A stretch of DNA of 64,000 nucleotides from Pseudomonadota bacterium (GTDB lineage Bacteria; Pseudomonadota; Gammaproteobacteria; Burkholderiales; Methylophilaceae), in assembly GCA_020053735.1 (NCBI GenBank), contig JAGVMP010000007.1:124001-188000 (forward strand). Direction: 5' to 3'. Position 1 is the first letter of the stretch; each line of letters opens with the position of its first letter. A program made the position numbers and the translations under genes. Below are positions 9,040-23,463 of the stretch, piece after piece. Under the pieces are notes generated by a model. It saw only the letters and a list, made by a program, of their open reading frames with translations, was not told the DNA's origin and did no database searches.

Positions 9040-9641
9040 TTTGGGTCTTCTTTGCTGGCTTCTTGATTTAGGGTAACGCGGTATTCCTCAAGTTTCGCTT
9101 CGTAATTTTCCGCCGCGCCAAAATCTAAAAAATGGGCATAGCGTGCGTGCGTGCTTACAATCTTTCGTGCATGTTTGATTGGACAAAAGTACTGTTCGGT
9201 CCGTGCCACTATTTCACTAATGTATGCAATCATGCCACTACCATAGGCGCAATAAGTACAATGAAACTTCTCGATAAAATTGAGATAATTGAGGTGTTGT
9301 CGATCAAAAACAATGTAATCGGCACGGTTTACTTTTTTAATGCCGTAAATTGGAAAACAGGTGAGCTGGTAAAAAGTGATGAATAAATCGGTCAACAGTA
9401 AGGGAGTAATCATCGAGTAAATAATCGGTCCAGTAATCAGGTTTTGCGGCCTATTGGTGATTAGCCAACGAAAGAAATTCTTTTTAAGTTTTAAGTGGGT
9501 CTGTTTAATCGACTGCTCAAACTCGACGCGTTTACCTTTAATCTGAAAAAATATACTGGATTGCTGTTCGCCAAGTACAGAACGTAGCTCATCTTCTAGT
9601 GCGGTAATCTGAGTTAATAGTTGTTGAATGCGGATATCCAT
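9036..9641 (-). CDS. Conserved membrane protein of unknown function, coupled to the beta-CASP nuclease
   Basis: I do not recognise a named family. The 201-residue protein has an N-terminal amphipathic/coiled-coil part (about 1-50). Hydrophobic segments at about 68-100 follow, probably two membrane spans or a hairpin. The cytoplasmic C-terminal part is rich in aromatic residues and contains the conserved-looking FHCTYCAYGSG (about 124-134). The two cysteines CxxC and nearby EQYFCPIKHA suggest a metal or redox site, which is inference. The stop overlaps the start of the nuclease gene, so the two are probably made together. Confidence 0.65.
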   Translation of the reverse strand: MDIRIQQLLTQITALEDELRSVLGEQQSSIFFQIKGKRVEFEQSIKQTHLKLKKNFFRWLITNRPQNLITGPIIYSMITPLLLTDLFITFYQLTCFPIYGIKKVNRADYIVFDRQHLNYLNFIEKFHCTYCAYGSGMIAYISEIVARTEQYFCPIKHARKIVSTHARYAHFLDFGAAENYEAKLEEYRVTLNQEASKEDPK

Positions 9642-9708: not shown

Positions 9709-9782
9709 AGTCTATCAGTCAGGCACCGACATACAAGTACGTGCTTGCACGCATTCTATCATCATCGAAATTTCTATATATT
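9709..9782. promoter_or_regulatory. Regulatory palindrome A with possible divergent promoters
   Basis: TACGTGCTTGCACGCA at 9738-9753 is a 7-2-7 inverted repeat; the left half matches the shared consensus fully and the right half 6 of 7. Rightward, TATATT (9777-9782) follows after 23 nt, in front of the cytochrome gene. Leftward, TAGACT (9714 to 9709 on the minus strand) also follows after 23 nt, in front of the membrane-protein/nuclease operon. No -35 hexamer is visible on either side, as expected for activator-dependent promoters. The regulator assignment is inference. Confidence 0.55.
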
Positions 9783-9865
9783 AATGCAGACAAAACAACG
9801 TAAAAGTTGCCAGTTGTGAACGGACGGTTTTGTAAGGCAAGGTGTTGAACTATGTGGAGTAGGTG

Positions 9866-10201
9866 ATGCGCGTAGTAAAAAAATTGATTTTTACCGTATG
9901 GTTATTCGTTGGTGCAAATTCTTTTGCACAGGCAGAAATCATACCTAACGAGGCGCGAGGAGGCTTACTCTATTCAACACATTGCAGTGCTTGTCACAAT
10001 TCTACAATTCATTGGCGCGAACAGAAACTGGCAACCGATTGGAAAAGTCTCAAGGCCCAAGTAAAACTCTGGCAGGGCTATACCAAGCTACGCTGGAGCG
10101 AGCAAGATATTATGGATGTGACTGCATATTTGAATATGCATTATTACAACTTTATTAGTAACGAACAAAAGGCTTTAACGCAGACTAAAAGTTCTAATTA
10201 G
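9866..10201 (+). CDS. Small periplasmic c-type cytochrome
   Basis: The product has a signal peptide (cleavage probably after FAQA), one heme-attachment motif CSACH about 20 residues into the mature protein, and a possible methionine ligand in YLNMHYYNF. It is a mono-heme cytochrome c of about 110 residues, an electron carrier or sensor in the periplasm. GTG 9863 directly precedes ATG 9866. The GGAG at 9856-9859 fits ATG 9866 better. It is the first gene to the right of palindrome A and may be co-transcribed with the DksA-like gene. Confidence 0.85.
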   Translation: MRVVKKLIFTVWLFVGANSFAQAEIIPNEARGGLLYSTHCSACHNSTIHWREQKLATDWKSLKAQVKLWQGYTKLRWSEQDIMDVTAYLNMHYYNFISNEQKALTQTKSSN

Positions 10202-10293
10202 CCAGATTTTAAAAGTTCAATTTAAAAGAGTATATCCAGCAGCCCATGCTTGAAAAATTTTAACCATCAAAAATTAGGAGCGAGGAACTACCC

Positions 10294-10685
10294 ATGACCA
10301 ATATAAGCAAGAATCAAATGGATGAATTGAAAAAAGTGATGGAAGCGGAACTTGCTCAGTTAATCAGTAAAACGCAAGATGAGATGGATCCTGAATCGAA
10401 GCCGAGTTATATCGATGTTGGTGGTGATGGTAACGCGGGGGATGAGGCCGTTGCTGACACATTGTGGATACTGATAATGCGGTTATTGGGCTGCACTTAC
10501 AGAAAGCCGTTGATTTGAATGCAGCTTTGGATCGCATCCAGTCAGGTGTTTATGGCGTATGCATCGATTGTGGGGAAGGTATTAGTTATGAGCGAATGTC
10601 TGCTTATCCAACGGCTAAACGCTGTGTTAGCTGCCAACATTTGCGAGAAAAGATGTTGGCCAGTGGACCCAAATCTAACTTGTAA
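10294..10685 (+). pseudogene. DksA/TraR-type zinc-finger regulator, frameshifted
   Basis: Two overlapping frames together make one DksA/TraR-family protein. The first (10294-10464) gives the N-terminal helix and DVGGDGNAGDEAVADTL. The second, read from about 10464, continues with VDTDNAVIGLHLQKAVDLNA and the C4 zinc finger CIDCGE...CVSC. Family proteins have GDEAVADxxxDxDNAVI uninterrupted. The break lies at ACATTGTGGAT (10459-10469), where one extra G would restore the frame. No slippery heptamer is seen, so this is a one-base deletion or a sequence error rather than programmed frameshifting. A working copy would bind RNA polymerase and modulate transcription under stress. Confidence 0.75.
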
Positions 10686-10693
10686 AGGTTAGG

Positions 10694-11149
10694 CTAACAT
10701 CGTCTTGTGGCTTCATTTTTCTGCTCACGCGTCACCAATTTACTAAGTGTAGCTAGTTCTTTACTCAGTAATAGTAACAAATCATCTAATGCAATAATGC
10801 CGGCCAGCCCGCCATCATCGTCCACAACTGGCAGGCGTCTAATGCCTTTGTCAGCCATTAACTGCATAGCTTCAAACATGCCCGCGCTTTCTTTTATAAC
10901 GATGAGCTTGCTGATGATGATATCGCCTACAGTAATCACCTCGCAGTCAAGCTCAGTAGCTACCAGCTCTACCACAATGTCACGGTCAGTCACAATGCCG
11001 ATAGGGATGGTTTTATTCTTGCGACTCTCAATCACAACCACATCACCTACATGATACTGACGCATGAGCATGGCAGCATGTAACACGGTGGCGTCGCGCT
11101 GTACCGTAATGACTTCGCGATTACAAATTGTGCCAATGGACATGGTCAA
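10694..11149 (-). CDS. CBS-domain pair protein
   Basis: The 151-residue protein consists of two CBS motifs (about 5-62 and 75-132) and a short charged tail. The motif signatures GIVTDRDIVVEL and GIRRLPVVDDDGGLAGIIALD are clear. Stand-alone CBS pairs bind adenine nucleotides and act as energy or stress sensors. Its ATG overlaps the stop of the cyclopropane-fatty-acid synthase gene by 4 bp, so it is the last gene of the leftward nitroreductase-to-CBS run. The partner and ligand are not visible. Confidence 0.88.
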   Translation of the reverse strand: MTMSIGTICNREVITVQRDATVLHAAMLMRQYHVGDVVVIESRKNKTIPIGIVTDRDIVVELVATELDCEVITVGDIIISKLIVIKESAGMFEAMQLMADKGIRRLPVVDDDGGLAGIIALDDLLLLLSKELATLSKLVTREQKNEATRRC

Positions 11150-12486
11150 TCTCCTCGTGGATGGATATTTTTAGCGGTATAAAGGTCGCGTCGTGTCAAT
11201 GGCAGGGTTGACCTTCCGTCATGCTTGCGTTCAGCCAAAATCTGGTAAATGCCCGTTGTGCCTTGCTCAAACTGTATGGCGCTGCCCGTCATATATAAGC
11301 GCCAAATGCGATAGGTACGCTCTCCCACTAAATGCGTCGCTTCTTCTTTCTTTGCATCGAGGCGGCTTACCCACTGCCGCAATGTCAAAGCGTAATGCGG
11401 CCGCAAGCCTTCAACATCAAAAATCTCAAAATTTGTATCTTCCATGCGTTGCTGAATTTTACTTACCGTATCTAATTCACCATCAGGGAAAATATGCCGG
11501 TTGATGAATTTTGTTGCAACGCTTTGGCGCCATCCCGATTTGGTGGTAGTAATACCATGGTTAAGAAAAAGCCCGCCGGGTTTAAGAACATGATTTACGA
11601 TGGAAAAGTAGTTTGGCAGATTTTTAAGGCCAACATGTTCAAACATGCCGATGCTAGATACTTTGTCATAAGTGGCCTCAAGCGGCAGGTCACGGTAATT
11701 GCGCATTTCAATAGAAACTTGATTTTGCAGTCCCTGTCTTTTTACTTCTGCATTTGCATATTCAAACTGATTCTGACTCAGTGTTATACCAAGCGCGCGC
11801 ACCCCATAATGTTTGGCTGCCCAGCAAACCAATGCTCCCCAGCCACATCCGATATCCAGCAATAGTTCGCCAGGTTGTAAGCGTAATTTTCGGCAAATGT
11901 GATCAAGCTTGTTGCGCTGTGCAGCATCTAAATCCTGTTCAGGCGTTTCAAAATAAGCGCATGAATACACCATGTGTTCATCCAGCCAAAGCTTGTAGAA
12001 CGCGTTAGAAACGTCATAGTGAAAAGCAATTGACTCAACACTATTTTGACGAGTCGTGCCGCTAAGTTTTCTGGTAATAGATTGATTCTTAGTGTGCTGT
12101 CGTTGCATTGATTTACTTTTTAATGCCAGTGCACGCAAGCCTAGCAAGAGCTTTTCTTGAAAAGGTAACTTCAAACTTTCTAGATAGTAGCGCAACTTCA
12201 TCGCCGTATTAAAGTCCCCAGCCACTTCTATCTCACCGTCAAAATAGGCTTCGGCTAGGCGAATAGGGTCCCTAAAAAACACCAATTGACGCAGTACATT
12301 TGGCGAGTGAATGTAAAGCGTGAATGCTGAAACACCTTTACCAATTTGCAACACACTGTTATCCCACAGCTTGACCGTAAAAGCGCCTAGATATTTTTTA
12401 AACAAACGCTTTAGGATATGGTGTGCAAGTTTGATACTTTTTTCATGAGGATTGTGCCTGCCTTGATTCAATACCTGTGCTGACAT
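11146..12486 (-). CDS. cfa: Cyclopropane-fatty-acyl-phospholipid synthase
   Basis: This SAM-dependent enzyme adds a methylene bridge to unsaturated membrane acyl chains, a change typical of stationary phase and stress. Family marks are AFHYDVSNAFYKLWLDE, the SAM loop LLDIGCGWGALVCW, SSIGMFEHVG and the C-terminal WRLYMTGSAIQFEQG. Although the frame is open to 12501, a strong GGAGG lies six bases before the ATG at 12486, so I place the start there (446 residues). It overlaps the 3' end of acetate kinase by about 44 bp, which implies coupled translation in the same operon. Confidence 0.92.
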   Translation of the reverse strand: MSAQVLNQGRHNPHEKSIKLAHHILKRLFKKYLGAFTVKLWDNSVLQIGKGVSAFTLYIHSPNVLRQLVFFRDPIRLAEAYFDGEIEVAGDFNTAMKLRYYLESLKLPFQEKLLLGLRALALKSKSMQRQHTKNQSITRKLSGTTRQNSVESIAFHYDVSNAFYKLWLDEHMVYSCAYFETPEQDLDAAQRNKLDHICRKLRLQPGELLLDIGCGWGALVCWAAKHYGVRALGITLSQNQFEYANAEVKRQGLQNQVSIEMRNYRDLPLEATYDKVSSIGMFEHVGLKNLPNYFSIVNHVLKPGGLFLNHGITTTKSGWRQSVATKFINRHIFPDGELDTVSKIQQRMEDTNFEIFDVEGLRPHYALTLRQWVSRLDAKKEEATHLVGERTYRIWRLYMTGSAIQFEQGTTGIYQILAERKHDGRSTLPLTRRDLYTAKNIHPRGD

Positions 12487-13561
12487 GATTGACCTCCGCA
12501 TACAAATTTTTGGCTAAACGTGCAATTTCAACTTCCTCATCGGCAGGGACTATCAATATGGGCTTAGAGGAAGCGTTGTTTAATATGGCTAAATTGGCTC
12601 GGTTTGACTCTGTGTTTAGAGCAAAGCCAAGAAATCCAAGTTGTTCACAAATTAGAGCGCGCACTTGTTTGGAGTGTTCGCCGATGCCGCCTGTAAAGAC
12701 TAGGGCGTCGATGCCGCCAGCTTTAGCAGCATAGCTACCAATGGTGGCACGTACTTGGCGAGCAAAATAGGCCACTGCAAAACTGGCATTTTTACTATTG
12801 CTAGCTGTTAATGCAGACATCTCGCTACTTTCCCCATCTGAAAGTGCCAATAAGCCAGACTTTTCGTAAATCAAGCTACTAAATTCAGCGTCATCATAAC
12901 GTTTGGCAAGTTCTAACATCACTCCAGGGTCTATGTCTCCACAGCGTGTTCCCATTGCGATGCCACCTGCAGCGCTATAGCCCATGCTGGTATCTACAGA
13001 GTATAAGTTTACTAGTAAGCAAAGACTTGCACCATGACCAAGGTGCGCGACGACAATCCGTCCTTTTGCGATTGCACCAAGCAATTTTGGTAATTGTTTG
13101 GCAACATGCGCGTAATTGATACCATGGAAACCATAGCGACGTAATTTGAGTGCTTGCGGAATCGCTAGCCGGTAGGCTATTTCTGGCAGGGTGGCGTGAA
13201 AGGCGGTATCAAAACAAGCAATCTGCGGACAATTGAATTGCTTGGCGCACAAATCCACGCCTAACAAGTTGGTAGGCATGTGCAGTGGCGCAAGATAAGT
13301 AATACTTTGTAAACGTGCCTGCTCATTGGCATCAATCAAACGTGCGGCATCTGCTATTTCCCCACCATGCACAAAGCGATGCGCAATTAGGCTTGGCTGC
13401 TTATTCTCTAAATCGGCTAGCAAAGCATTAAACGCATTGGTATGGCTGTGAGTATAATCGCTACCGCTGTAGGCGTAACGAAAGTTTTTCCGCTCGCCAT
13501 TGGTCATAAATAGGCTGACCTTGAGGCTAGAAGATCCGCTATTAATGGCTAGTATATTCAT
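12443..13561 (-). CDS. ackA: Acetate kinase
   Basis: Acetate kinase makes acetate and ATP from acetyl phosphate. The start [14 protein letters not shown] at 13561 is the canonical N-terminus; the frame extends six codons further to 13579. Other signatures are RFVHGG, the catalytic region [47 protein letters not shown] and FTGGIGEHS. At about 372 residues it is slightly short for the family. The start overlaps the phosphoketolase stop by 20 bp. The pair forms the ATP-yielding end of the phosphoketolase bypass. Confidence 0.95.
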
Positions 13562-15935
13562 CAGGCCATACCCAATCATCTTCTTCTGGCAAATCTACGC
13601 CGTATTCGCAAGCATATTGGCAACATTCCATTTGTCTGTTACGTAATTTCTCTTGTACATGCGCACCAATGCTTTGTAGACTCGGTATGCGGTTAATCGC
13701 ATCAATTGCCAAACTAAAGCGGTCAATTTCATTTTGAATGGCCAGTTCTAGCGGCGTGTTAATGCTGCCCTTTTCTTTATAACCGCGTACGTGCAAATTG
13801 TTGTGATTGGTCCGTCGGTAGGTGAGGCGGTGAATCAAATATGGATAGCCGTGAAAGTTAAAAATAATGGGTTTGTCAGTGGTAAATAAGCTATCAAAAT
13901 CACGGTCAGAAAGGCCATGTGGATGCTCGCTTTGCGGGCTAAGTTTATATAAATCCACTACATTGACGAAACGTATTTTGAGTTGCGGGAAGTGTTCGCG
14001 TAGCAACACTACAGCAGCCAAGGCTTCTTTGGTAGGAATATCCCCAGCACTTGCCATGACTAAGTCTGGCTCTTGCCCTGCGTCGTTACTTGCCCATTGC
14101 CATATGCCAATGCCCTTGGTGCAATGCTTAATAGCTGCATCCATACTGAGATATTGTAGGTGTTTCTGCTTATCGCAGACGATGACATTAATATAATCGG
14201 TGCTGTTCAGACAGTGATTCGCTACAGACAGCAGGCAATTCGCATCGGGCGGCAAGTAGATACGGGTGACTTCTGGGCTTTTATTGACTACGATATCGAG
14301 GAAGCCAGGGTCTTGGTGGGTAAACCCATTGTGATCTTGCCGCCAAACGGTAGAAGTAATCAGTAAATTAAGCGACGACACTGGCGCGCGCCAAGGCACT
14401 GCTTTAGACATTGCAAGCCATTTGGCATGTTGATTGAACATAGAATCAATCACATGCACAAATGACTCATAAGTCGAAAAAAATCCATGACGACCAGTGA
14501 GTAAGTAGCCTTCTAGCCATCCTTCAATCGTGTGTTCAGATAGCATTTCCATTACGCGCCCGTCTGGCGATAGTTCGCCGCCATCCGCATCTTCTGGCAA
14601 ATAATCCGCCATCCAAGTTTTTTTGCTTGCTTCGTAGATATTATCGAGTTTGTTTGAGCTATTTTCATCCGGCCCAAATACGCGGAAATTGTGCATATTG
14701 TGCTGCATGATGTCGCGCAGAAACTTGCCTAGTGGCCTTGTATTTTCAGCCGCCAACATGCCTGACTTATCTAAAACCAGCGCGTAATCGTTAAAATCTG
14801 GCATACGTAGGGCCTTGCGTAACAGACCGCCGTTGGCGTGCGGGTTGGCGCTCATGCGGCGATTTCCTTGTGGTGCAAGCGCCTTTAAATCTGGGTGTAG
14901 CCGTCCTTGGCTATCAAACAGCTCCTCTGGTTGATAGCTGCGTAACCAGTCTTCCAGTTGTTTTAGATGTGCAGGATTTTCTTTTACCTTTGCCAGCGGC
15001 ACTTGGTGAGAGCGCCAAAACCCTTCCACTTTATGGCCGTCTACTTCTTTAGGGCCTGTCCAGCCTTTAGGTGAACGGAGCACAATCATTGGCCAGCGAG
15101 GTCGTAGGGCCTTGCCACTGGAACGCGCCGTTTTTTGTATATGCTGAATCTCATTGACACATTGTTCCAGCGTGGTCGCCATGGCACTGTGCATGGCTAT
15201 TGGGTCGCTTCCCTCAACAAAGTAGGGAGTCCAACCATAGCCAATAAACAGGTTTTCCAGTTCTTCATGTGAAATACGAGACAAAATAGTTGGGTTATTG
15301 ATTTTGTAGCCATTGAGATGCAAGATGGGCAGCACCGCACCATCACGAATAGGGTTTAGAAATTTGTTGGAATGCCAAGAAGTTGCCAAAGGCCCAGTTT
15401 CAGATTCGCCATCGCCTACCATCACCGTCACTAATAAATCAGGATTGTCGTAAGCCGCACCGAAAGCATGTGAAATGCTGTAACCCAACTCGCCGCCTTC
15501 ATGTATCGAACCTGGCATTTCAGGGGTGCAGTGGCTGCCAATGCCGCCAGGGAAAGAAAACTCTTTTAAAAACTGACGTAAACCTTCTTCATCTTCCCCT
15601 TTATTTGGGTACACTTCACTGTAAGTACCTTCCAAATAAATTGGTGCGAGTACACCAGGCGCGCCGTGGCCAGGGCCAGCGAGGAAAATAGCATTGAGGT
15701 CGTACTTATTAATCAGCCGATTAATATGCACATAGGCAAAACTTAATCCTGGGCTAGAACCCCAATGTCCTAGTAGCCGTTGTTTGATATGTTCAGATTT
15801 GAGTGGGTGTTTCAGTAGAGGGTTGTCGCGCAGATAAATCATACAGGCGGCTAAATAATTGCAAGCACGCCAATAGGCATCTATAGATTGCAGTTCTTGC
15901 TGCGAAAGTTGTGTGTTTTTTTGTGGAGCATTCAT
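13542..15935 (-). CDS. xfp: Xylulose-5-phosphate/fructose-6-phosphate phosphoketolase
   Basis: This 797-residue thiamine-diphosphate enzyme cleaves xylulose 5-phosphate or fructose 6-phosphate with phosphate to acetyl phosphate plus glyceraldehyde 3-phosphate or erythrose 4-phosphate. Full length for the family. Signatures include [24 protein letters not shown], the ThDP loop [20 protein letters not shown], and HQDPGFLD and [11 protein letters not shown] in the second half. In a methylotroph that makes fructose 6-phosphate from formaldehyde, it would divert sugar phosphate straight to acetyl phosphate. It is followed with overlap by acetate kinase. Whether it prefers C5 or C6 substrate is not readable. 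Confidence 0.95.
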
Positions 15936-15966
15936 GTAAAGTTTTTGCCTTTATGGTTTTGCTTAC

Positions 15967-16443
15967 TTAAGATTTCTTTTTCGCTTTAGGCTTAGTTTTA
16001 GCCTTGGTTCTGACTAATAAAACAGGAACAGGGCTTGTTCTCGCGATGGTTTCAGCGTCGCTGCCCATCACTAAACGTTCAATACCTCGCAAGCCATGTG
16101 TGCCCATTATTATCAAATCCGCATGACATTTATTAACGTGATTTAGAATAGATTTGTATATTTGACCTCTGGTTGAAGCAACTAATTTAACGCTAGCTGA
16201 AACTCCAGCCAATTTAGCACTTTCTCTTGCCTGCGTTAGAATTTTCTTCCCATGCTCACGCAATCTATCAGTGATATCGATATAATTTAAATCCCCCGTT
16301 ACATCCACTATTGGAAAGTAATTGTCGACCACATGCAGAAAATGTAAATTAGCTTTCTGGTTTTTTGCAAGCTCAATAGCATGCGTTACCCCGCAATCTG
16401 AGGTTGAACTTCCATCGACAGGGCATAGGATTTGCTTATACAT
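15967..16443 (-). CDS. Universal stress protein (UspA family)
   Basis: The product is a single Usp domain with the N-terminal strand MYKQILCPVDGS and the nucleotide-binding pattern GTHGLRGIERLVMGSDAE. A Lys-rich tail ends the protein. The frame is open to 16473, but AAGGAG lies about seven bases before the ATG at 16443, which fixes the start (158 residues). Usp proteins with this motif bind ATP and support survival on energy or oxygen limitation. It lies between nitroreductase and phosphoketolase in the leftward run. Confidence 0.9.
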   Translation of the reverse strand: MYKQILCPVDGSSTSDCGVTHAIELAKNQKANLHFLHVVDNYFPIVDVTGDLNYIDITDRLREHGKKILTQARESAKLAGVSASVKLVASTRGQIYKSILNHVNKCHADLIIMGTHGLRGIERLVMGSDAETIARTSPVPVLLVRTKAKTKPKAKKKS

Positions 16444-16494
16444 CAATGACTCCTTTCCAAAAACCAATACCAATACAAAACATAGACGTTGGCT

Positions 16495-17100
16495 TTAACC
16501 GTTATGAACAGCTTGAAAATTCGCTAAAATTACGGGGCTTTTACGTAATACATGGATAATCTCATCATCTGGATAACCCACCACAATGGGAGCAACTACA
16601 GAAAATTTTTCTGGAATATTCAGCTTAATTTTTGTTTCTGCTGTGTTTAAAGCAGGTAAAGCACAGCCAATTACGCAGGTGCCTAATCCCATGGCGCAAG
16701 CTGCAAGCATGAGGTTTTCTGCAGCTAACCAGCAATCAGCAGCACAGGATGGTGCGGCCGTTTTGCCACAAAGCAGGATGAGGGTGCTTGCATCATAAAA
16801 AACATTAAAACTAGGGGAAGTAAAAACATCATATGAATGACCAGCACGCTCCAAGCCCCTTTCTTGTACCTCCGCAACAAACAGTGGTTTGGCTTGATCA
16901 GATAAGCTACGTAATAACTGGGGGTCTTGAATAATCACGAATGCCCAAGGCTCTTGATGTATGGCAGTCGGGGCTCGCACTGCTGCTTCCAATAGAATGC
17001 TAATGGTGGTTCTATCAACCTTGCGTGCCTTATAGCGGCGAACAGAGCGCCTAGCAAGTATCGTTTCAAAAATGGTCATTTCAACTTTAGGTAATGGCAT
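16495..17100 (-). CDS. Nitroreductase-family flavoprotein
   Basis: The 201-residue protein has the FMN-binding start ARRSVRRYKARKV, APTAIHQEPWAFVII and the C-terminal half MLAACAMGLGTCVIGCALPALN, as in NfsB/FRP-type NAD(P)H oxidoreductases. The natural electron acceptor is unknown. GAGG lies about 10 nt before ATG 17100; an internal ATG (codon 8) is an alternative start. It is the first gene of the leftward run, about 36 nt downstream of the transcription start predicted from palindrome B. Confidence 0.88.
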   Translation of the reverse strand: MPLPKVEMTIFETILARRSVRRYKARKVDRTTISILLEAAVRAPTAIHQEPWAFVIIQDPQLLRSLSDQAKPLFVAEVQERGLERAGHSYDVFTSPSFNVFYDASTLILLCGKTAAPSCAADCWLAAENLMLAACAMGLGTCVIGCALPALNTAETKIKLNIPEKFSVVAPIVVGYPDDEIIHVLRKSPVILANFQAVHNG

Positions 17101-17142
17101 AGTCTATTTACCTCATTCGCATATTATTCTTACCTGAATAGC

Positions 17143-17187
17143 ACAGTAGCAAGAATTTTCTAACTAGGTAATCCGCGCTAGCACGTA
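17143..17187 (-). promoter_or_regulatory. Regulatory palindrome B and -10 box of the nitroreductase-phosphoketolase run
   Basis: Read leftward, TACGTGCTAGCGCGGA (17187 to 17172) has one perfect and one partial half-site of the 7-2-7 motif. TACTGT (17148 to 17143) follows after 23 nt and fits a -10 box, giving a site centre near -43. The -35 position (TTACCT) is poor, as for an activated promoter. Confidence 0.55.
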
Positions 17188-17396
17188 TATTTTAAATGGC
17201 ACTAGCACGATGTTTACTTGTTAACGAGATACCAACATTGGCATCAAGGTAAACAAGGCGAGGCTAATAGCGTAAGAATATCTAGGATGACGCCTCTATT
17301 TGCGAGAGACTTTGCAATTTAATGTGTTGTTGTAGACGAATTATATTAATCACCATTAAGTGGTCGTGGTCAGGTAATCCGCGCTTGCACGTATAT
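17166..17396. repeat. Pair of 25-bp direct repeats carrying palindromes B and C
   Basis: The 25 bp at 17166-17190 and at 17372-17396, both beginning AGGTAATCCGCGCT, differ in a single base. They contain the regulatory palindromes B and C in the same orientation, although the two predicted promoters point in opposite directions. Identity beyond the 16-bp operator suggests a recent local duplication. The ~180 bases between them hold no recognisable gene. Confidence 0.7.
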
Positions 17397-17423
17397 AAAA
17401 TGATAATAGAGGAGGCCTACAAT
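17378..17423 (+). promoter_or_regulatory. Regulatory palindrome C and -10 box of the small lipoprotein gene
   Basis: TCCGCGCTTGCACGTA at 17378-17393 has a perfect right half-site and a 5-of-7 left half. TACAAT (17418-17423) follows after 24 nt, a good -10 hexamer about 64 nt before the lipoprotein ATG. Confidence 0.55.
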
Positions 17424-17486
17424 CGTACTGTGAACTTGACGAGTACTAACAGGACGAGTTCTACATGACGGTTCTGGGGAGCTAAA

Positions 17487-17600
17487 ATGAAATACAGCAC
17501 ACTTGGCATTCTTTTATTCGTTGGTGTTTTATTGGCCAGTTGCTCTCAACAACAAGACCCAACTAAACCCGCGCCGATAGAAACGAATATTGCCTATTAA
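17487..17600 (+). CDS. Very small lipoprotein (37 residues)
   Basis: This short gene encodes MKYSTLGILLFVGVLLASCS and 17 further residues ending at TAA 17598-17600. The LASC lipobox directs lipidation at Cys19, leaving a mature peptide of only 19 residues rich in Gln and Pro. GGGGAG (17476-17481) ends five bases before the ATG, and a palindrome C promoter precedes it. It runs towards the response-regulator gene and resembles entericidin-like small lipoproteins in size only. Its function is unknown. Confidence 0.7.
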   Translation: MKYSTLGILLFVGVLLASCSQQQDPTKPAPIETNIAY

Positions 17601-17609
17601 ATGTAGATC

Positions 17610-18218
17610 TTATTCGCTTTCATGCACAATACGCGCCAGATCAAGCAAGTTAACTGCACCAGTTTTTTGCATAATTTTAGACTTGTGAATTTCTACCGTG
17701 CGGTGGCTAATGCCTAATTGACGTGCAATATGCTTGTTGGGGTGACCCTGAACGGCTAGCAACATCACATCGCGCTCGCGGTCAGTAAGGTGAGCAAGGT
17801 GTGATAAGGCCTCTTGGTGATTAGCGTTTTCTGATAACAATCTTTCGGACTTTTGAATTGCAGCTTTAATTGAAGTAATTAGCTTTTCGCGGGTCACAGG
17901 CTTAGTGAGAAAATCCACTGCACCTGCTTTCATCGCTTGAACGCTCAAGGGAATGTCACCATGACCAGTCAGAAAAATAACGGGCAGCAAAATATTACGC
18001 GCTAACAGCAGTTGATGTAATTCCATGCCATCCATCCCGGACATGCGTATATCTACGATGGCGCAGCCGCGAGCTTCTGGTTGATATGCGTTAAGAAAGG
18101 TTTCTGCACTATCAAAAGCGCACACGCCAATGTTTTCCTGCTCAATCATTAGCGACAAGGAATCTCTGACAGCTAAATCATCGTCTATTATAAAAACAGT
18201 GGGTTTAGGCATGCTCAT
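17610..18218 (-). CDS. FixJ/NarL-family response regulator
   Basis: The 202-residue protein has a receiver domain (about 1-120) with acidic residues DDD (12-14), phospho-acceptor Asp56 in VDIRMSG, Thr in LTGHGD and Lys in LTKPV. A LuxR-type helix-turn-helix (about 143-197) contains LTDRERDVMLLAVQGHPNKH and SHRTVEIHKSKIMQK. FixJ-type regulators bind as dimers and activate promoters. Its ATG overlaps the kinase stop by 4 bp, so the pair is translated together. It lies beside palindromes C and D and is the obvious candidate to bind the 7-2-7 sites. Confidence 0.93.
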   Translation of the reverse strand: MSMPKPTVFIIDDDLAVRDSLSLMIEQENIGVCAFDSAETFLNAYQPEARGCAIVDIRMSGMDGMELHQLLLARNILLPVIFLTGHGDIPLSVQAMKAGAVDFLTKPVTREKLITSIKAAIQKSERLLSENANHQEALSHLAHLTDRERDVMLLAVQGHPNKHIARQLGISHRTVEIHKSKIMQKTGAVNLLDLARIVHESE

Positions 18219-19711
18219 GCTGCGAAAGGCAAAGTAAAGTGAAACTGTGCGCCAGTTTTATTATTCGGATCCAGCCAAAGTTGTCCTCCATTGGCTTCAA
18301 TCAGGGCGCGGCTAATGGCAAGCCCCATACCAATGCCAGTAGGTTTGGTGGTGAAGAAAGGCTCAAATATCCGTTTTACTAATTCTTGGCTTACTCCAGG
18401 CCCGCAATCTTGTATTGTGACGTGCCCCATGCTCATATCCTTATGTGTTTTTACTGTGACGGTTATCGTAGAATTGGCTACCCTTTCTGCACGCATTGCT
18501 TCCACAGCATTTCTTAACAAATTAACCAGCACTTTTTGTACCTGAATTCGATTGGCCTGAACGGCAGGTATATGCTGTTCTAGTTTTAGTATAGGTTGAA
18601 ATGCACTATAGCCATCACCTTTGGTAATATTCAATGCTTCTTGCACCGTGTGATTCAAATCAAACCGCTCGGTAACCAACTCACCTTCTTGTAGAAAAGC
18701 GATGAGCTCATGCAAGCTAGTGCCTGCACGCTGCGCTTGCACTACACAGCCTTCTAAAGCACGCTTTAATAAATCTGGATTATTGTTAGCGTTACTTAAT
18801 GCATGTAACGCCACTTCACTATAAGCGGAAATAGCGGTCAGTGGCTGATTGAGGTCATGTGCGATAGCTGAAGCCGTGTGTGAGGCGATTTGCTGTTTGT
18901 AAAATAACTCTGTCTCAGCACGTTGCTCTTGCAAGTTTTTTTCTACTATTTTGTGTTCGGTAATATCTCGCGCCACACCAACAAATCTTACCGCCTCCCC
19001 GTTTCTGAAGTGCATTTTTCCTACCGAAGATATCCAGCGCTCAATACCATCATTGGGGTTAGTGATGCGATATTCCATGTTGTATTTACCATGGCCAGAT
19101 GGGTCTAAGCAGCGATTAAATTCAATTTGCCTAGCCGCGCGGTCTTCTGGATTGATTGCAGCGATAAACTCATCATAACTCATTGGTTTATCAGGTTTTC
19201 CACCCCACAGTTCTAGCATTCTTTCATCACAATGAAACACCAGTTTTTTTGGATCTAAATCAAACACACCTAGGCTTGCAGCCTGCTTGGCTAGCTGCAA
19301 CCTTTCTTCGCTGACACGTAAAGCTTGCTCTGCTTCGCGCCGCTTATCTGCAGCATAAAAAGTGATTAAGGTGTAAAGCTGATTTTGCACTTTAATTGGG
19401 CTAAGACCAATATCTACAGCTAGTTCTTTGCCGCTACTACTTAGTGCGAAAAGGTCTCGACCATTGCCCATTGAACGCTTCTCTGGGGTTTTGAAAAAGG
19501 CATCACGATATTGTTGATGGTGCCCACGAAATCTATCTGGCATGAGCGATTCGACAGTAAGGCCACAGATGGTTGCTTCGCTATATCCCAGTAGCTGTAG
19601 CGCGGCAACATTAGCCTCAACTACTTGGCCAGCGTCATCCACCAGCAACATAGCGTCTGCCGCCGCATCGAATAGCGCTTTAAAGCTTAAGGCGTTTAGT
19701 GGGCTGGTCAA
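18215..19711 (-). CDS. PAS-PAS sensor histidine kinase, FixL-like
   Basis: The 498-residue kinase has no membrane segment and is therefore cytoplasmic. Domains are PAS1 (about 10-122), PAS2 (about 133-255), a dimerisation/phospho-acceptor helix with His285 in AIAHDLNQPLTAIS, and an ATPase domain with NLLRNAVEAM, DCGPGV, FEPFFTTKPTG and GMGLAISRALIEANGG. PAS1 contains FRGHHQQY and GNGR. His65 and Arg85 are 20 residues apart, the same spacing as the heme-ligand His and the oxygen-sensing Arg of FixL. This pattern also occurs in PAS domains without heme, so oxygen sensing is only a hypothesis. The partner is the overlapping regulator gene. Confidence 0.9.
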   Translation of the reverse strand: MTSPLNALSFKALFDAAADAMLLVDDAGQVVEANVAALQLLGYSEATICGLTVESLMPDRFRGHHQQYRDAFFKTPEKRSMGNGRDLFALSSSGKELAVDIGLSPIKVQNQLYTLITFYAADKRREAEQALRVSEERLQLAKQAASLGVFDLDPKKLVFHCDERMLELWGGKPDKPMSYDEFIAAINPEDRAARQIEFNRCLDPSGHGKYNMEYRITNPNDGIERWISSVGKMHFRNGEAVRFVGVARDITEHKIVEKNLQEQRAETELFYKQQIASHTASAIAHDLNQPLTAISAYSEVALHALSNANNNPDLLKRALEGCVVQAQRAGTSLHELIAFLQEGELVTERFDLNHTVQEALNITKGDGYSAFQPILKLEQHIPAVQANRIQVQKVLVNLLRNAVEAMRAERVANSTITVTVKTHKDMSMGHVTIQDCGPGVSQELVKRIFEPFFTTKPTGIGMGLAISRALIEANGGQLWLDPNNKTGAQFHFTLPFAA

Positions 19712-19820
19712 ATGATTTCTATCTAGTAAATTAGGCTAGCAGCTTGCAGTCTAGATAAAAAGCGCTTATCTGTCCAATGGTCTACTCATAATAAAGTCTC
19801 GTTGTATAAGGGCTTGCCCT

Positions 19821-19865
19821 TACGTGTTTGCACGAATGTATTCATCTCAGACTATCTAGTACATT
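19821..19865 (+). promoter_or_regulatory. Regulatory palindrome D and -10 box of the YqjD-like operon
   Basis: TACGTGTTTGCACGAA at 19821-19836 matches the 7-2-7 motif at 6 of 7 in each half. TACATT (19860-19865) follows after exactly 23 nt. The predicted start near 19872 leaves a 5' leader of about 76 nt before the first gene. A separate TTGACG at 19873-19878 could be a -35 box of a second, constitutive promoter. Confidence 0.55.
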
Positions 19866-19947
19866 ACTTACATTGACGGTGTTTAGTAAAGATACATAAG
19901 TTAGTAGCTTGACCGCCTTATAAACAAATTTCAATAGGAGAATGATG

Positions 19948-20262
19948 ATGGAAAAACTAATTGATGAAGCAAGCAAAGAGCAATTGGTTAACGATTTTAA
20001 AGTGGTCGTGGCAGACGCTGAGGCTTTATTGAAAGCAACCGCTGGACATGGCAGCGAAAAAATAGCCGAAGTGCGTGCTAAAGCAGAAAAATCGCTTACT
20101 GCAGCGAGAGCTAGAATGGCCGAGGCGCAATCGTTGGTGTTGGCTAAAGGCAAAGAGGCCGCGAAGGTGACTGATACTTATGTGCACGAGCACCCATGGA
20201 AGTCAATTGGAACTGCTGCGGCAGTAGGCGTGGTGGTTGGCATGCTTATAGGACGTCGCTAG
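19948..20262 (+). CDS. DUF883 (YqjD/ElaB-like) membrane-anchored protein
   Basis: About 104 residues: a long charged helix rich in Ala, Lys and Glu, then one membrane span near the end (GTAAAVGVVVGMLIGRR). This is the layout of E. coli YqjD and ElaB, inner-membrane proteins that bind ribosomes in stationary phase. Three ATGs occur in a row (19942, 19945, 19948). AGGAG at 19936-19940 is best spaced for the last. It opens the rightward stress run behind palindrome D. Confidence 0.85.
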   Translation: MEKLIDEASKEQLVNDFKVVVADAEALLKATAGHGSEKIAEVRAKAEKSLTAARARMAEAQSLVLAKGKEAAKVTDTYVHEHPWKSIGTAAAVGVVVGMLIGRR

Positions 20263-20295
20263 CCAACAAATCATTGTTGAATTTTTGAGATAACA

Positions 20296-20673
20296 ATGAC
20301 TGTTGAAAATAAGGGCTTGCTTGAGTCGCTAAGTGTGTTTGCGACCACTCTAGTGGGTGTTGCGCACACGCGGCTTGAGTTGCTATCTACAGACCTAGAG
20401 GAAGATAGGACGCATTTATTCTTGCTAGTGGTGCAGTACTTAATAGCGGCATTTTTCCTTGTAGTAGGCTTTGTGATTGCCATCATATTAATTGTTTTTG
20501 TTTTGTGGGAAAACCATCGCTTGTTCGCACTCTCTTTAACGGCGGGATTTTTTTTGGTTCTAGGTTTTGGTATAGCTGGTTATGCCATGTACAAATCCAA
20601 AATGAAACCTAGGTTGTTTTCAGCAAGCCTGTCGGAGCTGGCTAAAGATCAGCAAGCGCTTGATTCAAGATGA
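20296..20673 (+). CDS. YqjE-like (DUF1469) membrane protein
   Basis: The 125-residue protein has an N-terminal amphipathic part (about 1-40) and two membrane helices (about 42-68 and 75-97). It fits the YqjE/phage-holin-superfamily III group normally found next to yqjD. The biochemical role is unknown. It is the second gene of the yqjD-yqjE-yqjK-like set. Confidence 0.82.
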   Translation: MTVENKGLLESLSVFATTLVGVAHTRLELLSTDLEEDRTHLFLLVVQYLIAAFFLVVGFVIAIILIVFVLWENHRLFALSLTAGFFLVLGFGIAGYAMYKSKMKPRLFSASLSELAKDQQALDSR

Positions 20674-20697
20674 GGTTTTTTTTGACGAGATTGGCTC

Positions 20698-20988
20698 ATG
20701 AATAGAAAACTTCGCATACTGGCACAGCGGCGTGAACGTTTGGTGTTAGAGGCAGCTCAGCAACGGGTGCAATTGACGCAAGCCATAGAGGCTTGGCGCG
20801 GTCCCTTGGCCTTGGCTGATCAAGGGCTTGCCGCAATAAGTTTTATCAAGAGTCACCCTTTTTATGTAGCTGGAATCAGTGCAGTGTTTGTCAGGTTATT
20901 TAGGAAGAGTTTTATCGGAAAATGGTTTTCGCGAGGAAAGGTAACTTTGCACCTGGCGCGAAAGTTGCAAAGTATTTTTTTAGCTTGA
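20698..20988 (+). CDS. YqjK-like protein
   Basis: The 96-residue basic protein starts with a charged helix (RILAQRRERLVLEAAQQRVQ) and has one short hydrophobic stretch (FYVAGISAVFVRLF). Size, charge and position directly after the YqjE-like gene match YqjK. Family similarity is weak, and function is unknown. Confidence 0.65.
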   Translation: MNRKLRILAQRRERLVLEAAQQRVQLTQAIEAWRGPLALADQGLAAISFIKSHPFYVAGISAVFVRLFRKSFIGKWFSRGKVTLHLARKLQSIFLA

Positions 20989-21007
20989 ATGAAATAAGGA
21001 GCTATTA

Positions 21008-21196
21008 ATGAAAGTAAATGTGGGTGGCGTTGATCGTATATTGAGAATAATTGTAGGTCTTGTGTTGATAGGTTTGGCAATGACTGGAACTATTGGTATC
21101 TGGGGTTGGATTGGGTTGATTTTGCTTGCTACAGGGCTATTTAGCTTCTGCCCCGCTTACGGTTTAATGGGCATTAAAACCTGTAAAAATGATTAA
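21008..21196 (+). CDS. DUF2892 (YgaP-type) small membrane protein
   Basis: The 62-residue protein begins MKVNVGGVDRILRIIVGLVL and has two adjacent membrane helices ending in FSFCPAYGLMGIKTCK, the hallmark of the DUF2892 family seen as the membrane domain of YgaP. Here it occurs alone, without a rhodanese domain. AAGGAG lies a few bases before the ATG. The pair of cysteines near the end may be functional in the family; the role is unknown. Confidence 0.85.
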   Translation: MKVNVGGVDRILRIIVGLVLIGLAMTGTIGIWGWIGLILLATGLFSFCPAYGLMGIKTCKND

Positions 21197-21348
21197 GAAA
21201 AGTTGGTGTATTGATGCTGACTTAATATGCGTAAAGAGAGCTAGTGATAATTGCTAGAGACGATACAAAAAATAAACGCTAATAATTGAGCCCACCCCTA
21301 TTGTGCATTTTCACTTTTTGGCAAGTAGTAAAAAAAGAATTATAAAAA

Positions 21349-22290
21349 ATGAAATTTAAAGATTACTACGAAATTTTAGGTGTTGCTCGCACCGCGAGCA
21401 GTGACGAGATTAAAAAGGCCTATCGAAAACTTGCGCATCAATACCATCCCGATGTTTCAAAAGACCCCGCAGGCGAAGCCAAATTCAAAGAAGTAGGTGA
21501 GGCTTACACCACCTTAAAAGATAAAGAAAAACGTGCGGCTTATGATGCTTTAGGCCGCCATTCAGCCGGTGAAGAATTCAGGCCACCACCAAATTGGGCT
21601 GGCAGCCAAGCAGGCTATGACGGACAAGCCTTTTCATTTGATGATATTGATTTGGCAGATTTGTTCGCAAGTTTTTCTAAGGGGCGTCGTCGCCCTCAGC
21701 AGCCGGGTCAACAGCCCCCTATGCCGGGGCAGGATTACGAGATGGCAACGCAAATTTCACTTGAAGATGCGTATCATGGCACCACGGTAGAGTTAAGCTT
21801 TAAGGTGCCAGAGTATGACGCCCAAGGCCAATTGAAGCATGTGCCGCATGCCTTTAAAGCACGCATCCCTAAAGGCATGACCAACGGCCAAAAAATGCTG
21901 CTACGCGGCAAGGGTGGTAAAGGCTTTCATGGAGGTAAGGATGGCAATCTTTATTTGAAGATCAGTTTCATTCCGCACCGACTATTTCGTGCACAAGGTC
22001 ACGATTTATATCTTGACTTACCTCTTGCAGCTTCGGAGGCTGCATTAGGCGCAACAGTCAAAGTTCCAACCATAGATGGTGCGGTAAACCTGAAAGTGCC
22101 TGCAGGCGCCAAAACTGGACAAAAACTGCGCCTGGCAAATCGCGGCTTACCTAAGCATAATCAAGAGCATGGGGATCTTTTTGCAGTGATACAAATTGTA
22201 GTGCCAACAAGCTTAAGCGACAGAGAGCGAGAGTTATTTAAAGCGCTAGCAGATGCTTCAACGTTTAATCCGCGCGCAAATTTTGAATAG
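21349..22290 (+). CDS. cbpA: Curved-DNA-binding protein/DnaJ-class co-chaperone
   Basis: The 313-residue protein has a J domain (1-70) with the HPD triad at 33-35, which stimulates DnaK ATPase. A linker (about 75-130) contains GQQPPMPGQ. Two C-terminal substrate-binding domains follow (about 130-300). It lacks the DnaJ zinc finger, as CbpA does. A CbpM-like modulator gene two positions downstream supports the assignment. It is preceded by about 150 bp without a visible gene, so it may have its own promoter besides read-through from the YqjD-like genes. Confidence 0.93.
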
Positions 22291-22300
22291 GAGATTAATC

Positions 22301-23128
22301 ATGAGTTACAAAAGCTTGATGGTACATTTACATATAGGGCATTCTAATACCGCTGTGCTACATGTCGCGCGCAGTATTGCAGAACACTTTAACGCGGAAG
22401 TGATTGGAATTATGGTGGGCCAGCAAACGCAGATGATTTATGGCAGAGGCTATGCGGCGCTAGATTTTTTTGATCGTGAAGATGAGCAACTCGAAAAAAG
22501 AGTATCCGAGGCGGAGAATTTATTTAGAGATGCTTTTAAAGGATTTTCTAGAAAGATTGAATGGCGCTCGACCATTACCAGAGAGCCCATGGCTAATTAC
22601 ATTGCAGCAGAGGCGCGTTGCGCAGATATGATTATTACAGGCATTTCTCCCACTGACTTTTATGAAGGCCCAACTGGTGTGACAGCAGGCGAGATTGTGA
22701 TGCAATCGGGTCGCCCTGTGTTGGCCGTTCCTGTCGTCACAGAAAAGTTTATATTGGATCATATATTAATTGGGTGGAAAGACTCGCGTGAGGCAAGGCG
22801 AACAGTCGCAGATGTTCTGCCACTACTAAGGCTGGCTAAGCAAGTTACCATTGTAGAGATAGCAGCAGAGACGGATTTGGCGAAAGCGGATAAGCGGCTT
22901 CATGATGTTGTGAATTGGCTCAGACGGCATGACATTGCCGCAGACTATTCAGTAGCTACTTCGGTAGAAGCTGATTCGACTCAGTTTATCTCTATAGCAA
23001 AGCAACAAAATGCAAGTTTAGTGGTTGTAGGCGCTTATGGGCATAGCCGCTTACACGAATGGGCGCTAGGTGGGGTGACTAATGAATTGCTACAAAGAGC
23101 AGAATTTTGCTGCCATCTTTCTCACTAA
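22301..23128 (+). CDS. Tandem universal stress protein
   Basis: The product of about 275 residues carries two Usp-like domains (about 1-145 and 150-275), a form common in proteobacteria. The second shows VVVGAYGHSRLHEWALGGVT, the nucleotide-binding pattern. The frame opens earlier (22253), but AGGAG at 22289-22293 sits seven bases before ATG 22301, which fixes the start. The last residues (AEFCCHLSH) differ from the usual PVPVLMSH-type end. It lies between cbpA and the cbpM-like gene, an insertion in that usual pair. Confidence 0.88.
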   Translation: MSYKSLMVHLHIGHSNTAVLHVARSIAEHFNAEVIGIMVGQQTQMIYGRGYAALDFFDREDEQLEKRVSEAENLFRDAFKGFSRKIEWRSTITREPMANYIAAEARCADMIITGISPTDFYEGPTGVTAGEIVMQSGRPVLAVPVVTEKFILDHILIGWKDSREARRTVADVLPLLRLAKQVTIVEIAAETDLAKADKRLHDVVNWLRRHDIAADYSVATSVEADSTQFISIAKQQNASLVVVGAYGHSRLHEWALGGVTNELLQRAEFCCHLSH

Positions 23129-23143
23129 TACGGGACATCTGTG

Positions 23144-23458
23144 ATGAACGTTGAATATCCAGAATCAATATTACCAGATTCGATATTACTAGATGAGCAA
23201 CATGAGATTTCATTGAATGAACTGGCTGAGTTATCTGGGCTATCGTTAGAGGAGCTGTATACGCTAGTAGATAGTGGTGTGCTTTTGCCGAATAATCCAG
23301 AGGATGCCATTTGGCATTTCAATAGTCACTATGTCATATCAGTACGAACCCTTTTCAGGCTGAAACAAGACTTTGAATTGGAATCAAGTTCGCTTGCATT
23401 AATGTTGACTTTTTTGGAGCGTATCCGAATACTTGAGCATCAGTTAAATAGGCATTAG
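23144..23458 (+). CDS. cbpM: CbpM-like chaperone modulator
   Basis: About 104 residues with a MerR-like helix-turn-helix core (EISLNELAELSGLSLEELYT, then LVDSGVLLP) and a C-terminal helical part ending RIRILEHQLNRH. CbpM binds the J domain of CbpA and inhibits its co-chaperone and DNA-binding activity. GTG 23141 immediately precedes ATG 23144; either may start. Position close to cbpA supports the call. Confidence 0.85.
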   Translation: MNVEYPESILPDSILLDEQHEISLNELAELSGLSLEELYTLVDSGVLLPNNPEDAIWHFNSHYVISVRTLFRLKQDFELESSSLALMLTFLERIRILEHQLNRH

Positions 23459-23463
23459 CCATT

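What the first reader, a model, noticed from the sequence alone, without database searches (positions are those of the whole stretch)
9709..19865. Shared 7-2-7 palindrome with fixed spacing to a -10 box: a candidate new FixJ/NarL-type regulon
Seen directly: TACGTGCTTGCACGCA (9738), TACGTGCTAGCGCGGA read leftward (17187-17172), TCCGCGCTTGCACGTA (17378) and TACGTGTTTGCACGAA (19821). All four are intergenic and fit TACGTGC-N2-GCACGTA. Each is followed after 23, 23, 24 and 23 nt by TATATT, TACTGT, TACAAT and TACATT, so the site centre falls near -43 and no good -35 exists. Known: NarL/FixJ-family regulators bind 7-2-7 inverted repeats. Such a regulator is encoded at 17610-18218 among the sites. 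Inference: it activates the cytochrome, the nitroreductase-to-CBS run, the 37-residue lipoprotein and the YqjD-to-ATPase run.
Basis: partly seen in the sequence, partly recalled or inferred. Interest (0 to 1): 0.85.

Follow-up and report, generated by a model that had tools for sequence, protein, structure and literature searches.

The report
Switch for a bacterial survival gene set
Four matching DNA landmarks near one two-component regulator look like real on-switches for a set of stress and low-energy survival genes, because the same landmarks, at the same distance from the promoter, sit beside close relatives of that regulator in other bacteria.

Summary
In detail: all four 7-2-7 palindromes are at the stated places, are intergenic, and have a -10-like hexamer 23 or 24 nt after the site. 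The own genome alone is weak evidence: nine places with up to 2 mismatches against seven for a control, but four are these sites and the other five lie inside ORFs. Related genomes decide. Of 46 loci whose regulator is at least 55% identical, 42 carry a promoter-like site; below 50%, 5 of 65 do. The -10 falls exactly 23 nt away in 29 of 40 sites, against 0-8 at other offsets. Best reading: a FixL/FixJ-type pair directly activating a DosR/lxa-like survival gene set from an operator centred near -43.5. Binding and expression are untested, and oxygen as the signal is a guess. Against: the exact motif is not enriched in more distant regulator-bearing genomes. New member of a known kind, with an unusual composite operator.

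The parts
9738..9753 (+). site 1, TACGTGCTTGCACGCA
   Evidence: corresponding sites L069 1878 and L070 8914
9777..9782 (+). -10-like TATATT, 23 nt after site 1, toward the cytochrome-like gene
9709..9714 (-). leftward -10-like TAGACT, 23 nt from site 1, toward 9036-9641
   Evidence: TAAACT at the same offset in L070; not in the list for L069
9036..9641 (-). 201-aa protein, possible leftward target together with 7663-9039 (MBL-fold by resemblance)
   Evidence: target status inferred
9863..10201 (+). small protein with CSACH, likely a c-type cytochrome
   Evidence: no Pfam match at 0.001; haem motif read by eye
10294..10685 (+). DksA/TraR-like gene in two overlapping frames
   Evidence: family name recalled, not tested
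10694..17100 (-). nitroreductase to CBS run: nitroreductase, Usp, phosphoketolase-like, acetate kinase-like, CFA synthase-like, CBS
   Evidence: Pfam for nitroreductase, Usp and CBS only, other names by resemblance; operon inferred
17172..17187 (-). site 2, TACGTGCTAGCGCGGA read leftward
   Evidence: one of 16 nitroreductase promoters in the fetched loci
17143..17148 (-). -10-like TACTGT, 23 nt from site 2
17378..17393 (+). site 3, TCCGCGCTTGCACGTA
   Evidence: L069 9503 and L071 9511 have the same 24-nt spacing
17418..17423 (+). -10-like TACAAT, 24 nt from site 3
17487..17600 (+). 37-aa lipoprotein ORF, possible remnant of a cytochrome lipoprotein
17610..18218 (-). response regulator, REC + GerE/LuxR HTH (FixJ type)
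18215..19711 (-). sensor kinase, PAS-PAS-HisKA-HATPase (FixL-like)
19748..19776 (-). candidate promoter of the kinase gene, TGGACA-17-TAGACT
   Evidence: such matches there are at chance level overall; a TAGACT/TAAGCT-like box seen by eye in relatives
19807..19822 (+). second palindrome TAAGGGCTTGCCCTTA, 14 bp upstream of site 4, sharing 2 bp with it
19821..19836 (+). site 4, TACGTGTTTGCACGAA
19860..19865 (+). -10-like TACATT, 23 nt from site 4
19942..26034 (+). YqjD/DUF883, holin-like, YqjK-like, small membrane protein, DnaJ/CbpA-like, Usp, MerR_2, P-type ATPase-like run
   Evidence: Pfam for DUF883, the holin-like protein, Usp and MerR_2 only, other names by resemblance; operon inferred, 152-bp gap before 21349

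Best explanation
A FixL/FixJ-type two-component pair (kinase 18215-19711, regulator 17610-18218) directly activates a survival regulon around its own genes. The phosphorylated regulator would bind as a dimer to TACGTG(C/T)-N2-GC(A/G)CGNA. The site is centred about 43.5 bp before the transcription start (if the -10 is placed at -12 to -7), next to the -35 position of sigma-70-like promoters that lack TTG there, and so would recruit RNA polymerase. At the promoter divergent from the kinase gene a second dimer would sit 14 bp upstream on TAAGGGC-N2-GCCCTTA. Shown here: the sites, the fixed spacing, the tandem pair, and their association with close relatives of this regulator. Inferred: binding, phosphorylation, activation. 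Guessed: low oxygen or energy limitation as the signal, from the FixL-like first PAS domain and the gene content.
For: Half-site permutation test in 28 fetched family stretches: 28 sites with up to 2 mismatches, mean 1.73 over 630 palindromes, rank 1. Loci with a site (up to 3 mismatches) plus a -10 at 22-24: 42 of 46 at regulator identity 55% or more, 7 of 17 at 50-55%, 5 of 65 below 50%. On the regulator tree 50 of 66 rows of one half have such a site against 4 of 62 of the other (drawn root). Same-family genomes: 59 exact TACGTGYNNGCRCGNA matches against 10 control in 25 genomes with the regulator, 15 against 36 in 75 without; 24 of 25 against 11 of 75 genomes have a match (Fisher p 3.6e-10, treating sites as independent). 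-10 at offset 23 in 29 of 40 sites, other offsets 0-8. Tandem site at shift 14 in 39 of 78, at most 4 at any other shift from 1 to 54. Downstream genes: a nitroreductase cluster of 16 promoters and a cluster of 14 small proteins, of which the one scanned is DUF2934. Regulator D56 is aspartate in 42 of 42. Kinase H65 is invariant in 21 of 21 and aligns with a histidine of FixL; that this is FixL's haem ligand is recalled.
Against: No binding, expression or 5'-end data. Own-genome total 9 against control 7. At order level the exact promoter-oriented motif is not enriched: 143 of 399 genomes match, and the 19 genomes other than the window's with a regulator at E up to 1e-55 total 12 matches against 15 control (my reading of the table). 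G084 has promoter-like sites but no regulator at E up to 1e-30. 16 of 66 rows in the regulator's half of the tree have no such site. The position of FixL's distal arginine (recalled) is arginine in only 10 of 21 kinases, the window's among them, so haem binding is unsure. The kinase gene seems to use its own promoter, not one 23 nt from the site. Many of the loci are close relatives, so counts are not independent events.
Confidence: 0.82

Rival explanations
1. The palindromes are operators of another regulator in the same genomes, and the FixJ-type gene is only a passenger in the same gene cluster.
For: The regulator lies inside the cluster, so co-location alone cannot assign it; G084 has promoter-like sites without a detected regulator.
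Against: Presence of the site follows sequence identity of this regulator across several families, including loci where the window's other cluster genes were not found by tblastn; 7-2-7 symmetry fits the NarL/FixJ family (recalled).
Confidence: 0.1
2. A CRP/FNR-type oxygen regulator drives the cluster, as predicted for the Burkholderia lxa locus.
For: lxa has a similar gene content and its predicted regulators are CRP family proteins (PMC4981469, passages). TTGATNNNNATCAA with up to 2 mismatches is over-represented in the window (83 against 47.9 expected).
Against: No match with 0 or 1 mismatch lies in the four promoter regions; the nearest, at 17346 and 19712, have 2 mismatches. The -10 spacing is fixed to the 7-2-7 sites.
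Confidence: 0.05
3. The regulator represses these promoters by covering the -35 region.
For: The site abuts the -35 position, and a weak -35 above shuffled level is present.
Against: 0 of 78 promoters have TTG at -35, which suggests that they need help; the spacing is tightly fixed.
Confidence: 0.08
4. Chance palindromes.
For: The window scan at up to 3 mismatches is not far from shuffles; the whole-genome count is near control; order-level counts are at control level.
Against: Loci in other genera and families carry the same kind of site, spacing and, in part, target genes.
Confidence: 0.01

Closest known systems
FixL/FixJ of rhizobia and Burkholderia
   Same: PAS kinase whose profile matches FixL constructs best and whose first PAS matches FixL; the regulator's two best full-length solved relatives are 1yio (StyR, name recalled) and FixJ 5xso. 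Burkholderia FixLJ responds to low oxygen (PMC5234846, abstract and passages).
   Different: The named FixJ target there is fixK; here the sites stand directly before stress and metabolic genes. Haem binding not shown; the distal-arginine position varies.
DosR/DevR and OsdR dormancy regulons
   Same: Two-component regulator, 16-nt palindrome, targets including universal stress proteins, nitroreductases and heat-shock proteins (PMC5069765, passages).
   Different: Consensus differs (OsdR AGGGCCGATCGGCCCT). Actinobacterial; no sequence comparison with DosR made here.
Burkholderia lxa (low-oxygen-activated) locus
   Same: Universal stress proteins, heat-shock protein, acetate kinase, cation ATPase, MBL-fold protein, cytochrome c (PMC4981469 and PMC6127331, passages).
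   Different: Predicted lxa regulators are CRP family. The lxa two-component genes and promoters were not compared here; Sass 2013 is not held.
NarL 7-2-7 sites
   Same: Heptamer arrangement (recalled).

Membership tests
NarL/FixJ (LuxR-type HTH) response regulators | REC domain plus GerE HTH | tested here: met
   PF00072 4.6e-27, PF00196 3e-18
NarL/FixJ (LuxR-type HTH) response regulators | conserved phospho-acceptor aspartate | tested here: met
   D56 in 42 of 42 core sequences
NarL/FixJ (LuxR-type HTH) response regulators | binds an inverted repeat | not testable with these tools
   only association shown
FixL oxygen sensors | PAS with the FixL-type histidine | tested here: met
   H65 in 21 of 21 kinases, aligned with a histidine of FixL entries; its role as haem ligand is recalled
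FixL oxygen sensors | distal arginine of the haem pocket | tested here: inconclusive
   arginine in the window's kinase but in only 10 of 21 kinases of A2; the role of the position is recalled
FixL oxygen sensors | haem binding and oxygen response | not testable with these tools
   none; I do not file the kinase as a FixL
lxa-type locus | survival gene set with universal stress proteins | tested here: inconclusive
   content overlaps by annotation; no sequence comparison with lxa made
lxa-type locus | induction by low oxygen | not testable with these tools
   none

The most novel reading that the evidence does not exclude
A previously undescribed direct regulon, mainly betaproteobacterial with outlying members in Methylococcaceae: one FixJ-type regulator commands a dormancy-like survival gene set through a composite operator of two different, overlapping 7-2-7 palindromes (TAAGGGC and TACGTGC half-sites, 14 bp apart), read by two adjacent dimers. 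A gene set like lxa would thus be wired to a FixJ-type regulator rather than to a CRP/FNR protein.
Probability: 0.5. Interest if true: 0.66.

Novelty: new member of a known kind. Interest (0 to 1): 0.55.

Why it matters
It gives an uncharacterised sensor-regulator pair, present in relatives of this window and in Nitrosomonas, a defined operator, a promoter geometry and a list of targets that one binding or expression test could confirm. It also lets the wiring of survival gene sets be compared across DosR, OsdR, lxa and this group.

Tried and rejected
Chance: rejected by the tests in close relatives, though the window and own-genome counts alone would not have done so. FNR box: no 0- or 1-mismatch match in the four promoters. 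Autoregulation of the kinase gene through a -10 at 23 nt: not seen; its promoter seems separate. Order-wide enrichment of the exact motif: not seen. Second palindrome as a window-wide element: only the copy at 19807 is exact, and at up to 3 mismatches the count equals chance (3 against 2.73). Candidate specificity residues H172 and K179 in the HTH differ from distant FixJ types; not pursued.

Literature: ten searches. The exact consensus string gave 0 papers; in the other listings, titles and abstract openings only, I saw no paper naming this motif or regulon, and several listings were capped. Passages were read in PMC4603805, PMC5234846, PMC9104464, PMC3759415, PMC9733578, PMC6127331, PMC5069765 and PMC4981469. 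Sass 2013 on lxa is not held, so novelty is open.

Limits of my counts: ORFs come from a naive caller; sites labelled inside an ORF there include L086 17649, L088 8172, L100 4959, L265 7171 and sites in L238, L241 and L244, not checked further. One search chose sites by having a -10 at 22-24, so its offsets are no evidence of spacing; one search is. One search examined 128 of 131 loci (3 dropped for short or broken matches), did not require sites to be intergenic, and includes the window, near-copies and two pairs of identical regulators. One search is a quick tree with many weak forks. One search fetched 20 chosen regions; many other hits far from the regulator were not fetched, so they are no random sample.
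Full report
Check of the observation. The four sites are exactly where stated. They are the only places in the window with up to 2 mismatches to TACGTGC-N2-GCACGTA, are intergenic by a naive ORF caller, and have -10-like hexamers after 23, 23, 24 and 23 nt. In the own genome 9 places match with up to 2 mismatches and the control 7; the 5 outside the window lie inside ORFs of 202 to 470 codons. So this genome shows a cluster of four, not a genome-wide excess.

Comparative test. The regulator was found at E up to 1e-30 in 26 of 100 same-family genomes; one of these (G053, 39% identity) I count as lacking the ortholog, leaving 25 with and 75 without. In 28 fetched family stretches around the regulator the motif ranks first of 630 permuted palindromes at up to 2 mismatches (28 against mean 1.73); at up to 3, twelve of 630 do as well or better. 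In 14 named loci with regulators of 52-80% identity it ranks second at up to 2 (9 against 0.93). In the 66 lower-ranked named loci there is no excess (2 against 5.03). Twenty order-level loci gave 8 sites against mean 1.21, rank 4 of 630, at up to 2 mismatches and 3 sites, rank 1, at up to 1; two of these twenty repeat regulators already seen (identical rows). Over 128 regulator sequences, presence of a site with a -10 falls with identity: 42 of 46 at 55% or more, 7 of 17 at 50-55%, 5 of 65 below. The label changes 13 times on the tree against about 41 in shuffles.

Genome-wide contrast. Exact TACGTGYNNGCRCGNA: 59 matches and 10 control matches in 25 genomes with the regulator; 15 and 36 in 75 without; 24 of 25 and 11 of 75 genomes have a match (Fisher 3.6e-10, treating sites as independent). 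Of the matches and near-matches I fetched 20 chosen regions: 14 from genomes with the regulator and 6 from genomes without. Thirteen of the 14 held 14 exact matches; the best -10 within offsets 21-25 was at 23 for 13 of these 14 (scores 2.3 to 5.7), although three matches were labelled inside an ORF. Downstream genes included an Hsp20, a Memo-like protein, a heavy-metal type P-ATPase, an NMD3-like protein and a nitroreductase. Of the six from genomes without it, four held matches inside ORFs with no good -10, and two (both G084) looked promoter-like. At order level the exact motif is at control level: 143 of 399 genomes match, and 19 regulator-bearing genomes besides the window's have 12 matches against 15 control.

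Promoter geometry. Of 40 sites with up to 2 mismatches, 29 have a -10 score above 3 at offset 23 in one orientation; any other offset has 0-8 (near-duplicates included). In the 15 intergenic sites of the order-level loci, offset 23 has 10, offset 34 has 7 and offset 24 has 5. In 78 dereplicated promoters (chosen for having a -10 at 22-24) none has TTG at -35 at the 17-nt spacer, though the best -35 score is above shuffles, and 18 have TG before the -10. If the -10 occupies -12 to -7, the site centre is near -43.5.

Tandem operator. In 39 of those 78 promoters a second 7-2-7 palindrome, mostly of the TAAGGG type, lies exactly 14 bp upstream and shares two bases; no other shift from 1 to 54 exceeds 4. 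Many of these are corresponding promoters in related genomes, so they are not 39 independent events. In the window it is TAAGGGCTTGCCCTTA at 19807-19822. L117 (a Methylobacter bin) has sites at 3046, 3060 and 3074, 14 bp apart. The pair is most regular at the promoter divergent from the kinase gene, in this family and in Nitrosomonas.

Targets. Downstream genes grouped into a nitroreductase cluster (16 promoters) and a small-protein cluster (14), then smaller groups; one small protein was scanned and is DUF2934. In the window the nitroreductase run also holds Usp and CBS genes and genes that I name by resemblance as phosphoketolase, acetate kinase and CFA synthase. The lipoprotein promoter is matched in L071, where it precedes a lipoprotein with a cytochrome c domain; the window and L069 have only 37-39 residues, so a shortened gene is likely.

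Sensor and regulator. The kinase profile matches FixL constructs best, and its first PAS matches FixL and DosP PAS domains. H65 is invariant in 21 of 21 kinases and R85 is arginine in 10 of 21. The regulator's two best solved relatives are 1yio and FixJ 5xso. Oxygen as signal is my inference from this and from the gene set, which resembles lxa and DosR/OsdR regulons (passages read).

Noticed in passing
10294-10685: The DksA/TraR-like gene is split over two overlapping frames here, while the relative L070 gives one 154-aa frame.
   Followed up: no
17487-17600: The 37-aa lipoprotein ORF sits where L071 encodes a cytochrome c lipoprotein; the haem part seems to be missing here and in L069.
   Followed up: partly
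19836-19942: Genes found between this site and YqjD in relatives (DUF2934-like, PAS-like, Hsp20-like) are absent here, which suggests a deletion.
   Followed up: partly
L117 3046-3089: Three palindromes in a row at 14-bp steps in a Methylobacter bin.
   Followed up: no
L248, L249 (G084): Promoter-like sites in a genome where no regulator was found at E up to 1e-30.
   Followed up: no
window, whole: FNR-like TTGATNNNNATCAA with up to 2 mismatches is more common than in shuffles (83 against 47.9).
   Followed up: no
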